Origin: Kiritimatiellia bacterium
GTDB lineage: Bacteria > Verrucomicrobiota > Kiritimatiellia > B70-G9
Length of the DNA stretch: 39,782 nucleotides
NCBI GenBank assembly: GCA_029934055.1
Contig: JAOZMZ010000010.1
Span: 1 to 39,782 of the forward strand
Direction: 5' to 3'
The notes beneath the pieces were generated by a model that worked only from the letters and a program-made list of their open reading frames with translations, had not been told where the DNA came from and searched no databases. Both the position numbers and the translations under genes were made by a program. Each line of letters starts with the position of its first letter. The stretch's first letter is position 1. Positions 30,605 through 39,782 of the stretch are shown here, in pieces.

Positions 30605-31150
30605 GTGACGGATATCATATTCTATTGCCCGAAATGCGGCGCGAAGCTCTCCGCAGGCGTTGATGAAGTCGGCGAAGAGTTTGAGTGTCCGGTTTGCGGA
30701 GCACTTCAGAGAGTGCCGGGGGAGAAGTCGGCGGCGCCCGCCGCCGAAGTGGTCCAGACGATTGCACCGGCCCCGGCCGGTCCGCCGCCGTCTACCAAGG
30801 TGATCCGCGTTCCAAAAAAGAAGATCGTTTTGTCTTCGCGCGAGGAAGAGTCCGAAGACGAAGTCGAGGAGATCGAGGAGGAAATCGAAGAGCAGGTTGC
30901 CGGTTCGGGGTTGCGCGTGCTGGCAATGGCCGTCGGAGCGGTGGCGGTGATCTTGTGTGGGGCGGCGCTGACCTGGGTCGTATTCACGGCGCGGGGGGCT
31001 TACCGGGATTGGTGGCAGATCATGCTGACCTTCGGTACGATTTTCCTGTTGTCATTGATCGGCGTGGTGGTGGCGGTCATCGCGTTCCGCATAGAACGGA
31101 TACTGGCGCTGCTTGAGCTGCTGGAAATCGGCGGGGACGAAGAGGATTGA
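30605..31150 (+). CDS. Zinc-ribbon membrane protein with acidic linker and two predicted TM helices
   Basis: N-terminal FYCPKCGAKLSAGVDEVGEEFECPVCGA, acidic EESEDEVEEIEEEIEEQ, then two hydrophobic segments. Confidence 0.75.
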   Translation: MTDIIFYCPKCGAKLSAGVDEVGEEFECPVCGALQRVPGEKSAAPAAEVVQTIAPAPAGPPPSTKVIRVPKKKIVLSSREEESEDEVEEIEEEIEEQVAGSGLRVLAMAVGAVAVILCGAALTWVVFTARGAYRDWWQIMLTFGTIFLLSLIGVVVAVIAFRIERILALLELLEIGGDEED

Positions 31151-35548: not shown

Positions 35549-35929
35549 CTATTCGCCGTAGGCGGTGACCGTGAGGCGTTCGTAGATCAGAAGCACGTTG
35601 AAGTACTCGTAGTCGGCGTAATGTACTTTTGATATGCCGCCGTTACGGGCGGCGTCCTGGATGCTGCAGCTGTCGAAAGCCAGCGGCAGCCAGATGCAGG
35701 GATAGGGATTGATGTAGCTCACACTGGCGGATCCGCTTTTGGGACACTCGGCGGGTGTTCTATCGAAATTCGCCGTCAGGGGGGCCTTGACCTGGGAAAT
35801 CAGACAGCCGCCCGGCGGGACGAAGGGGGCGCGGTATTGGGGGAGGGCGCAACCACTGACGGCCAGGACGAGCGCGGCCGGGAGGACCACCCTGATGCAG
35901 AATCGCGGCGGCTTCATTGATGCAATCAT
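35549..35929 (-). CDS. TRL-like family lipoprotein (possible start 35914)
   Basis: Lipobox AVSGC; CSIQDAARNGGISKVHYADYEYFNVLLIYERLTVTAYGE parallels the neighbouring TRL-like paralog. Confidence 0.75.
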   Translation of the reverse strand: MIASMKPPRFCIRVVLPAALVLAVSGCALPQYRAPFVPPGGCLISQVKAPLTANFDRTPAECPKSGSASVSYINPYPCIWLPLAFDSCSIQDAARNGGISKVHYADYEYFNVLLIYERLTVTAYGE

Positions 35930-36261
35930 TCGCCCGTGACTATCACCGTGGTTTTGGTGTAGATGCCGATGATGTTAAAGAACTCATAATCGGCGTGATA
36001 GATTTTCGTCAGATTACCGTTGCGGGCGGCGGTGGCGATACTGCAGTCACCGAAAGCCAGCAATCCCCAAAGCATTGAGGTGGCCGAGGCCGTGCCCTGG
36101 CGGGTGCCGACGGGGGTCTTGTCGAAGTCGGTGCTGATGGGAGCCTTGGTCTGGTTGAAGACCAATCCGGGGGGCGGGACCACCGGTGCGATCAGGGTAC
36201 AGCCGAGAGAGAAGACGCTCAGGACAAGAGCCACGGCGATGAGTAAAGCGAACCTTTTCAT
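35926..36261 (-). CDS. TRL-like family lipoprotein
   Basis: MKRFALLIAVALVLSVFSLGCTLIAPVVPPPG...LAFGDCSIATAARNGNLTKIYHADYEFFNIIGIYTKTTVIVTGE. The 35926-37095 ORF is a chance read-through into upstream sequence. Confidence 0.8.
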   Translation of the reverse strand: MKRFALLIAVALVLSVFSLGCTLIAPVVPPPGLVFNQTKAPISTDFDKTPVGTRQGTASATSMLWGLLAFGDCSIATAARNGNLTKIYHADYEFFNIIGIYTKTTVIVTGE

Positions 36262-36347: not shown

Positions 36348-36530
36348 TCAGAGGCTGGAACCGCGCCAGTGAAGTTTGCGCCGCAGGAGATCGAAGTAGC
36401 TGTAACCGGGCACGAGCACGAGGCGTGCCGAGCGGGGGCTGCGGGTGATGGTGATGGTGTCGTTTTGAAGGAGATGGGCGTGTTCCTGGCCGTCCACCGA
36501 CATAAGTGCGGCGCGCGCCGCCTTTGGCTC
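36348..36530 (-). pseudogene. C-terminal fragment of NAD kinase, 5' part missing at a sequence junction
   Basis: ALMSVDGQEHAHLLQNDTITITRSPRSARLVLVPGYSYFDLLRRKLHW resembles NAD kinase C-termini (DGQ...GD.V.I..S...A.LI......YFD.LRRKL.W). Confidence 0.7.
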
Positions 36531-37183
36531 CGTTGGTGAGGACCAGCCGCCCCTCACCATAGTTTCCGGCATAAAACAGGCTGTTGTTATTCAGAAGAGA
36601 ATTTGCTCCCTCAATGACTACCTTGCCGTTTCCATTTGTGCCGTTGCCGATATAAAAGTAGTAATTGTTGAGGAGTCGGCCGTCGTTGCTTATACAAAGC
36701 GTGCCATTGCCTTCATCACCGATGTAGAAATTGTCCTCGTTATTCCAGTCACTTCCGGAATTGGAAATGTTCAATGTTCCCGTGCTGCCGATCATGTAGC
36801 CGACTATTGCATTCGTGGTGTAAATGCTGCCGCCGATGATATTCAATGTGGCGTCATCAGACGCATCCTGCCCGATACGAAAGCCGTAATTGTATTCCTT
36901 GGCGGTTCTTATCCAGTGGGCTGCAAGGTTGAATGAAACGTCGCCGTAATGAATCGCAAGATGATTCAGCGTATGGTTATTGGCAAAAGAGACAGTGTAA
37001 GTTGCCGTATTGGTGAATATGCACCAGTCGTCTTCGGTCGGCAGGGCTATATTTGGGATCCCAATTGTCCGTGTTTTCAAAAAGCCCGTTTTCAACGAGC
37101 CGGTGATAGGGCTGTGCGGGAGAATTGAGTCCCGCCAGCAGAAGCAGCAGAAGGCACAACGAAATTTGTGCAGATTTCGTCAT
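36525..37183 (-). pseudogene. Truncated, frameshifted adhesin/autotransporter-repeat-like secreted protein
   Basis: Signal peptide MTKSAQISLCLLLLLLAGLNSPAQ (from 37183), ENTDNWDP, +1 shift, NIALPTEDDWCIFTNTATYTVSF...TLNIIGGSIYTTNAIVGYMIGSTGTLNISNSGSDWNNEDNFYIGDEGNGTLCISNDGRLL...GRLVLTNGAK, then abrupt loss of the repeat pattern. Confidence 0.7.
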
Positions 37184-37493
37184 ACCCGGAAGGTTACCAA
37201 GACGGGTGACCGCATCCTTTCGCGCCTGCCGGGCTGTTTCCCTGCGAAGCATGGTAATTCGCGGGCCTGCGCGTTTGCTTTCCACCCGAAGTCGGCACGC
37301 CTTAATGGGTCTATAGGTTTTTTTGTTGCCAAGGATATTCATTATGGGAATAATGCGCCGCATATTTTACCTCCGATGCCTGTCAAACGGGCAGCAGGAG
37401 AAGGTTTAATGCCGATAGCTTGGACTCAGGCTGAGAGTTTTGAAGGCATTATTTCGCTATTGATGTAGAGTTCGGTTGTTCAATCAGGCAACT

Positions 37494-37534
37494 AAATGGA
37501 GAATAATCAAATGGAGGATAATCAAATAGAATAA
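37494..37534. repeat. Short 15-bp direct repeat, 2.7 copies (aaatggaGaataatc / aaatggaGgataatc / aaatagaataa)
   Basis: Units at 37494-37508 and 37509-37523 differ at one base; partial third unit follows. Confidence 0.8.
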
Positions 37535-37697
37535 GCGCAAGAAAGGTCGCCGCTTTCGTTTGACAGGTGTGTCTTTTTCGGGCTAGCGACCTCTCCAGAT
37601 CGCAGTTGGCGACTTGAGATACTCGCAAAAGGTTGCCGGGGATGGTCGCCTTAGCATGAGGTAAAAAATGCGTAAAAATCAAAAAAGGAGCGGAGAA

Positions 37698-38945
37698 ATG
37701 ACGAAGCGTAATCCCTTTGAGGTTGCACAAAAGCAGTTGGATGAATGCGCACAGATTATGAAGTTAGATTCTGCTTCGCATGCAATCCTTCGAGTCCCAA
37801 AGCGGGAGATCCACGTATCATTGCCGGTGCGGATGGATGACGGCTCTATCAAAATGTTTCAAGGATTCAGGGTTCAGTACAATGATGCAAGGGGGCCAAC
37901 AAAAGGGGGGATTAGGTTCCATCCCGATGAAACAATTGATACTGTTCGGGCATTAGCGGCCTGGATGACATGGAAGTGTGCCCTGCTCGACCTACCTCTT
38001 GGCGGTGGGAAAGGTGGGGTCATTTGCAATCCCAAAGAAATGTCCCAGGGTGAACTGGAGCGCTTGAGTCGCGCATACATCCGGGCGATATCCCAGTTCA
38101 TCGGCCCAGACAAAGACGTTCCAGCACCTGATGTTTACACAAATCCTCAAACAATGGCTTGGATGATGGATGAGTATTCAAAGATTGCAGGTAAGAATCA
38201 ATTTGGTGTTATCACTGGCAAACCGCTTAGTGTAGGTGGTTCTGTTGGGCGAGGTGACGCCACAGCACGCGGCGGGGTATACACCCTGCGTGAAGCTGCA
38301 AAAGAACGTGGTATCGACCTTAAGAAAGCCACTGTTGCCGTTCAGGGTTATGGTAATGCCGGATATTATGTGGCGGGTCTCGCTAAATCTCTTTTAGGCT
38401 GTAAGGTAGTCGCTGTTAGTGATAGCAAAGGGGGCATATTCACAGAGGAAGGGCTTGATCCAGAGGCTGTTCATAAACATAAGGCTGAAACGGGGTCGGT
38501 GATTAATTTCCCAAATACTAAAGCGATTTCTAACGAAGATATTTTGGAACTTGAAGTGGACGTGCTTATTCCCGCCGCCTTGGAAAATGTTATCACAGAG
38601 AAGAATGCACCGAATATTAAGGCTAAAATTGTTGCTGAATTGGCTAATGGCCCAATTACACCAGAGGCCGATGATATACTACATAAGAACGGCATCCACG
38701 TGATACCAGATTTCTTATGCAACGCTGGCGGAGTAACTGTTTCATATTTTGAGATGGTGCAAAACATGTATATGTACTATTGGGACGAAAAAGAAATCCA
38801 CGAACACTTAGATAAGAAAATGACTACAGCGTATCATTCAGTGCTAAATGCATCCAAAAAATACAATATAAATATGCGGCAGGCAGCTTATGTTTTGGCT
38901 GTTGAACGTGTAGTTGATGCGATGAAGGTTCGTGGGTGGATATAG
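37698..38945 (+). CDS. Glu/Leu/Phe/Val dehydrogenase family: glutamate dehydrogenase
   Basis: SD aaggag before ATG 37698; [83 protein letters not shown]. Confidence 0.95.
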
Positions 38946-39056
38946 TTTATTGATGATATGAAATTGGAGTGGAGGCGTAGTATGGCGTTCGGGGTCACGA
39001 CTGGACAAGCCACAAACAGATCATGTGGTGGCCGCTGAATGTGCTGGAGCTTGTGA

Positions 39057-39473
39057 ATAGCAGGGCCTTTAAGGATAGATATAGAGAACGGCTGGTATCA
39101 TATCACCGCACAAGCCATGCAGCGGCGGAGTCTTTTCCCCGATGATTCATACAGTGTGCATTTTCTGGAACTGCCGCCGGAGACGAGTCTGCGCTGTGGC
39201 GTGGAGGCACATGCCGGCCCGCTTGAGGGGGGAATGACTATCATCGGATTATTCGGGCGCCGGTGCGGTATTGCAATGGTTGAATGTCAGTCACAGCGTG
39301 TGGTTCAACCGGGAGGAAAAATCAGGGGGACTTGTTTTGCCGGGAGCGATTCGGGGAGCGTTGTCATTGACGAGAAAAGACACCTAGCTCTTGATTGCAA
39401 GTTGTCCGATGTCCAGATGTGTGACTCCTCCGAGAAAAGGTTTCACCGGCGAGTTCTTGGTGGTGAACTATAA
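39057..39473 (+). pseudogene. Decayed REP-associated tyrosine transposase (Y1/IS200-like, RAYT)
   Basis: Frame upstream of the called ATG reads AGPLRIDIENGWYHITAQAMQRRSLFPDDSYSVHFLELPPETSLRCGVEAHA; NDYH appears in a shifted frame, NVSHSVWFNREEKSG in another, and VIDEKRHLAL back in the original. Confidence 0.75.
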
Positions 39474-39782
39474 GCCTTGCATTCCCATATTTGCATTCTG
39501 TAGTCGGAGGAGGGCACCCTGATCATACCAAAAATTGGGGGTAGAGGTTGACCGATTTCCTGGATGAAGCGAGCGCTGTCCGGCAATTTGGTGGTTTTGC
39601 CGACCTTTGTAACTATGTAGTCATGAATTTTGCAGTTGGGTTCACCAAGCAGGCGCAGTTTTGCTCCAGCTTTTTCGGTCGCGTACCAAATTTCTGGCGG
39701 CCCCCAAACAATCGCGCCTTGGGGGATAGCCTGCGGAGGGCCAGATAAAGAGGCGTTGCTACAGTAACTTTGTTCCGTAGGC
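39443..39782 (-). CDS. Partial minus-strand ORF open to the right edge, unknown function
   Basis: Open on the minus strand from the edge to TGA at 39443-39445: ...GPPQAIPQGAIVWGPPEIWYATEKAGAKLRLLGEPNCKIHDYIVTKVGKTTKLPDSARFIQEIGQPLPPIFGMIRVPS. No family recognised. Confidence 0.3.
   Translation of the reverse strand, partial: PTEQSYCSNASLSGPPQAIPQGAIVWGPPEIWYATEKAGAKLRLLGEPNCKIHDYIVTKVGKTTKLPDSARFIQEIGQPLPPIFGMIRVPSSDYRMQIWECKAYSSPPRTRR

What the first reader, a model, noticed from the sequence alone, without database searches (positions are those of the whole stretch)
36500..36560. Abrupt junction: NAD kinase C-terminus fused to an adhesin-like fragment, with composition shift
On the minus strand the GRLVLTNGAK repeat pattern stops. 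In another frame the next codons become AARAALMSVDGQ..., the last roughly 55-60 residues of a NAD kinase. Its catalytic N-terminal part is missing, and DNA to the right is visibly more AT-rich. NAD kinase is usually essential, so either a second copy exists, a mobile insertion disrupted it, or the contig is chimeric here.
Basis: partly seen in the sequence, partly recalled or inferred. Interest (0 to 1): 0.6.

Follow-up and report, generated by a model that had tools for sequence, protein, structure and literature searches.

The report
Likely assembly chimera at NAD-kinase tail
The half NAD-kinase gene glued to a piece of an adhesin-like gene is most likely a wrong join made when short metagenome reads were assembled: the same bin holds a complete NAD kinase on another contig that overlaps this spot, so this is an ordinary artefact and not a broken essential gene.

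Summary
The junction is real in the sequence. A NAD-kinase (NADK) tail (51 residues, 36351-36503, minus strand) stops dead, a GC-rich stretch of about 20 nt follows (36504-36525, containing a 14-bp perfect palindrome), and then AT-richer DNA begins: an adhesin-like N-terminal fragment, a glutamate dehydrogenase (GDH), and unrecognised DNA. The window is all of contig C81 of a draft genome with 115 contigs (88.9% complete).

The same genome carries a complete 290-aa NADK at the end of contig C2, behind TlyA as in all 11 class relatives examined. C2 and C81 share 377 bp with only 2 differences, both at third codon positions of NADK. Outside that block identity falls abruptly. C2 has NADK whole but the next gene (TRL lipoprotein) cut; C81 has TRL whole but NADK cut. 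Laid end to end, they give one ordinary locus. In the sister genus, NADK lies beside the homologue of a gene at 30.6-31.1 kb of this window, so the window's left 36.5 kb belongs with NADK.

Best explanation: a wrong join at a strain-variant site in a short-read assembly (about 0.82). A true strain-specific rearrangement cannot be excluded without reads. The origin of the 3.3-kb right arm is unresolved. Not a real feature.

The parts
36351..36503 (-). C-terminal 51 codons of a NAD kinase (stop at 36348-36350); the other ~239 codons are absent here
   Evidence: Aligned to intact NADK on G000:C2 with 2 differences, both at third codon positions; intact copy matches PF01513 and PF20143
36127..36503 (.). 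377-bp block shared with the end of contig C2 (C2:48-424), 375/377 identical: NADK tail, intergenic stretch and start of the TRL gene
36504..36525 (.). Breakpoint: GC-rich filler with a 14-bp perfect palindrome GCGGCGCGCGCCGC (36508-36521), not homologous to C2
   Evidence: this 14-mer occurs once in the fetched genome
36526..37095 (-). Adhesin-like fragment (about 190 residues) truncated at the breakpoint
   Evidence: No Pfam match; 26-33% identical to stretches of long ORFs in 3 of 37 relatives; no other copy in this genome
37052..37183 (-). Signal-peptide-like start MTKSAQISLCLLLLLLAGLNSPAQ, in a different frame from the rest of the adhesin-like fragment (frameshifted)
37668..38945 (+). Intact glutamate dehydrogenase, AT-rich (GC3 0.43, 0.24th percentile of this genome)
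   Evidence: PF02812 and PF00208; closest relative G002 of the same family, 87%
38946..39782 (.). DNA with no recognised gene, to the contig end
   Evidence: One frame without Pfam hit; no credible match in own genome or near GDH relatives
35926..36261 (-). TRL-like lipoprotein gene, complete here, truncated on C2
   Evidence: PF13146 5.7e-20; C2 diverges at its position 47
35549..35929 (-). Second TRL-like gene (45% identical to the first)
   Evidence: PF13146
30605..31150 (+). Gene whose homologue lies beside NADK in the sister genus (G001:C49), linking the window's left arm to NADK

Best explanation
The join at 36504-36525 is an assembly chimera in a short-read metagenome bin. In the organism, the window's left 36.5 kb most likely runs on through NADK into contig C2 (TlyA-NADK-TRL-TRL-YidD-TPR). 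The sample appears to hold at least two strain versions of this locus. The assembly graph forked there. One path (C81) was continued into an unrelated 3.3-kb AT-rich piece through a short GC-rich palindromic bridge, and the other (C2) ended after about 47 bp of different unrelated sequence. Shown: the overlap, the reciprocal truncation, the intact NADK, and the composition step. Inferred: that the bin is a short-read metagenome assembly, the strain origin of the two SNPs, the graph mechanism, and the adjacency of C2 and C81.
For: (1) Intact 290-aa NADK on C2:272-1141, the only full copy in the bin. (2) C2 and C81 share a 377-bp block with 2 differences, both third-position in NADK; on either side identity drops at once to 10/30 and 17/44. 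(3) Reciprocal truncation: C2 has NADK whole and TRL cut, C81 has TRL whole and NADK cut. (4) TlyA-NADK is conserved in 11 of 11 class relatives with DNA fetched, so C2 has the normal arrangement. (5) In G001 (sister genus) NADK (C49:6910-7401, minus) lies ~150 bp from the homologue of window 30605-31150 (C49:6535-6759, plus), the same order and orientation as C81-left plus C2. (6) Contig ends in this bin share exact 54-55-bp overlaps (15 pairs), typical of a k=55 de Bruijn assembly, and 8 more pairs dovetail over 56-162 bp with a few mismatches, so breaks at strain-variant sites recur; of overlaps >=100 bp at >=95% with one side near a contig end and the other internal, only two exist and C2/C81 is the longer. 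(7) Both genes at the breakpoint are cut there. (8) The right arm shares no 21-mer with the rest of the fetched genome and is a composition outlier. (9) In a benchmark, SPAdes made on average 2.63 chimeric contigs per genome from short-read metagenomes (PMC11261854).
Against: No reads or coverage were available. GDH on the right arm has an 87% relative in a same-family genome (G002), so the arm need not be foreign. Other AT-rich stretches exist in this genome (C74:22-31 kb). Misassembly is described as relatively rare in MAGs compared with mis-binning (PMC8201837).
Confidence: 0.82

Rival explanations
1. A true rearrangement in one strain: a deletion, insertion or recombination joined the 3' end of NADK to an adhesin/GDH segment in that strain, while another strain or another locus keeps the intact NADK.
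For: The two SNPs between the NADK tails are both synonymous third-position changes, so two real versions of the locus probably exist. GDH occurs at 87% identity in the same family. The adhesin-like fragment's codon usage is not atypical (36th percentile).
Against: Needs a second, independent oddity at the other edge of the same 377-bp block (C2's TRL also cut). Both genes at the break are truncated. No repeats, transposase or integrase were found at the break in what was scanned.
Confidence: 0.13
2. A real segmental duplication in one genome: a 377-bp copy of NADK tail plus TRL start lies at two loci, one with intact NADK (C2) and one with intact TRL (C81).
For: Both contigs carry the block, and 2 differences in 377 bp would fit a young duplication.
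Against: Each copy lacks exactly what the other has, which a duplication does not predict. Sister-genus gene order ties the C81 left arm to NADK.
Confidence: 0.05

Closest known systems
Chimeric contigs (misassembly) in short-read metagenome-assembled genomes
   Same: Abrupt switch of homology and composition inside a contig, genes truncated on both sides, intact version on another contig of the same bin, overlap with a few strain SNPs
   Different: Reads and coverage, the usual proof, were not available here
Bacterial NAD kinase (PF01513 + PF20143)
   Same: The tail at 36351-36503 is identical in protein sequence to the C-terminal 51 residues of the bin's intact NADK
   Different: Lacks the N-terminal domain and most of the C-terminal domain; cannot be a working NADK
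Long adhesin-like proteins of class relatives (ORFs of 645 to 7025 aa)
   Same: 26-33% identity to stretches of them, signal-peptide-like start
   Different: Only about 190-215 residues here, frameshifted near the start, cut at the breakpoint

Membership tests
Assembly chimera | Sequence on each side belongs to a different place or genome | tested here: inconclusive
   Left side overlaps C2 (377 bp, 2 differences) and homology stops at 36503; right side shares no 21-mer with the rest of the fetched bin and is a composition outlier. This fits, but the true place of the right arm was not found
Assembly chimera | An unbroken version of the locus exists elsewhere in the same assembly | tested here: met
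   Intact NADK next to TlyA on C2
Assembly chimera | No reads span the join, or depth changes there | not testable with these tools
NAD kinase (functional) | N-terminal domain (PF01513) present | tested here: not met
   Only PF01513 match in the bin is on C2
NAD kinase (functional) | C-terminal domain (PF20143) complete | tested here: not met
   C81 has only the last part; the only family match in the bin is on C2
Mobile-element insertion | Terminal repeats or target-site duplication, transposase or integrase | tested here: inconclusive
   No repeats of 12 bp or more in 36400-36700; no such family in the right-arm frames scanned, but not every frame was scanned and a duplication shorter than 12 bp would be missed

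The most novel reading that the evidence does not exclude
A strain really carries an adhesin/GDH segment fused to the 3' end of NADK, produced by a GC-palindrome-associated rearrangement, with NADK kept intact elsewhere or in a sibling strain.
Probability: 0.12. Interest if true: 0.25.

Novelty: not a real feature. Interest (0 to 1): 0.08.

Why it matters
It matters mainly for quality control. Anyone annotating this genome should not report a broken essential NADK or an adhesin-NADK fusion, and should treat 36504-39782 (adhesin-like fragment and glutamate dehydrogenase) as not securely part of this chromosome neighbourhood.

Tried and rejected
Strain-variant NADK extending past 36503 (the frame reads AARAAL, which looks NADK-like): rejected as homology, because the seven codons before the shared ATG differ from C2 at 13 of 21 nt (my count from the sequences), near chance, beside a block that is 99% identical. 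Finding the right arm's donor: its DNA matches nothing else in the bin; the closest GDHs in the GTDB contigs are 58-83% identical across many phyla and 87% in G002, so no donor was pinned. Gene order around GDH: only GDH itself is shared with G002 at that place. YidD/TRL as neighbours of NADK in relatives: YidD not informative; one relative (L014) has a TRL homologue next to NADK but in the opposite orientation, weak support. A regular-expression count of adhesin motifs was too strict to find even this fragment and is disregarded; the profile search was used instead.

Full report
What is there. The window is contig C81, all 39,782 bases of it, of a draft genome with 2.2 Mb in 115 contigs, 88.9% complete, 0.9% contaminated. 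On the minus strand the last 51 codons of a NAD kinase end at 36351 (stop 36348-36350); going upstream in the gene, homology stops at 36503. Positions 36504-36525 are a GC-rich bridge containing the 14-bp palindrome GCGGCGCGCGCCGC (36508-36521), which occurs once in the fetched genome; perfect 14-bp palindromes of any sequence occur about once per 5 kb here, so its placement is suggestive only. From 36526 rightwards lie an adhesin-like fragment (minus strand, signal-peptide-like start at 37183, frameshifted near 37050-37095), an intact glutamate dehydrogenase (37668-38945) and 0.8 kb without recognised genes.

The intact NADK. Profile searches for PF01513 and PF20143 find one match each over the cut-off in the bin, both on contig C2. 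C2:272-1141 encodes a full 290-aa NADK, preceded by TlyA. In all 11 class relatives whose NADK region was cut out, TlyA lies directly before NADK. So the essential gene is not broken in this genome.

The two contigs overlap. C2:48-424 equals C81:36127-36503 except at two positions (36453, 36474), both third codon positions of NADK, and the protein is unchanged. This looks like strain variation and not sequencing error. At both edges identity falls at once: 10 of 30 beyond the NADK edge, 17 of 44 beyond the TRL edge. C2 has NADK whole but leaves the TRL gene after about 45 codons and runs 47 bp in other sequence (reading SDGDGIHDWWEWQYY) to its end; C81 has TRL whole but leaves NADK after 51 codons. 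Each contig holds exactly what the other lacks. One ordinary locus, TlyA-NADK-TRL-TRL-YidD-TPR, with a wrong continuation on each contig, explains this most simply.

Gene order in the sister genus. In G001 (same family, other genus) NADK at C49:6910-7401 (minus) stands about 150 bp from the homologue of window gene 30605-31150 at C49:6535-6759 (plus). Order and orientation agree with the window's left arm followed by C2, with some 5 kb of genes between them here. This ties the left 36.5 kb to the NADK locus independently of the overlap. It rests on one 225-bp DNA match at 69% (E 7.8e-18).

How the assembly behaves. Fifteen pairs of contig ends share exact 54- or 55-bp overlaps, as a de Bruijn assembler with k=55 leaves them (inference from general knowledge of such assemblers). 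Eight further pairs dovetail over 56-162 bp with a few mismatches, so ends that differ by SNPs are common in this bin. Of overlaps of at least 100 bp and 95% identity where one side is near a contig end and the other is internal, there are two, and C2/C81 is the longer. Chimeric contigs are a known error of short-read metagenome assembly: about 2.63 per genome for SPAdes in one benchmark (PMC11261854), though misassembly is called relatively rare elsewhere (PMC8201837).

The right arm. Its GC of 48.4% is lower than 99.7% of equal stretches of the genome; tetranucleotide distance is at the 99.5th percentile, though a Mahalanobis measure puts it only at the 95th. GDH has GC3 of 0.43 (0.24th percentile); the adhesin fragment's codon usage is unremarkable. 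No 21-mer is shared with the rest of the fetched genome. GDH is 87% identical to one in G002 of the same family, at most 62% to others in the class, and up to 83% to those of quite different phyla. It may therefore come from this family, or be a transferred gene; the donor or true location is open. The adhesin-like fragment has no other copy in this genome and weak relatives (26-33%) in 3 of 37 relatives, inside much longer reading frames, so it too is probably cut at the breakpoint.

Verdict. The main rival is a genuine strain-level rearrangement (0.13), which only reads can exclude.

Noticed in passing
window:32442-32614: Dispersed repeat: 33-120-bp pieces at 91-97% identity on C18, C68, C100, C109 and C114 of the same genome; short similar pieces also occur on many contigs of G002.
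   Followed up: partly
window:35549-36261: Two adjacent TRL-like lipoprotein genes, 45% identical: a tandem paralogue pair.
   Followed up: no
window:37668-38945: The GDH resembles those of Dehalococcoidia, Hadesarchaea, Nitrososphaerales and others (78-83%) more than those of most of its own class (62% or less), except G002 (87%); suggests horizontal spread of this GDH.
   Followed up: partly
window:37040-37100: The adhesin-like gene changes frame shortly after its signal-peptide-like start.
   Followed up: no
G000:C74:22000-31000 (L168): Another AT-rich stretch (47-52% GC) in a 60% GC genome, about 9 kb, not examined.
   Followed up: no
G000:C44:2664-3092 and C109:1337-1766: 430-bp repeat, 96% identical, on two contigs.
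   Followed up: no
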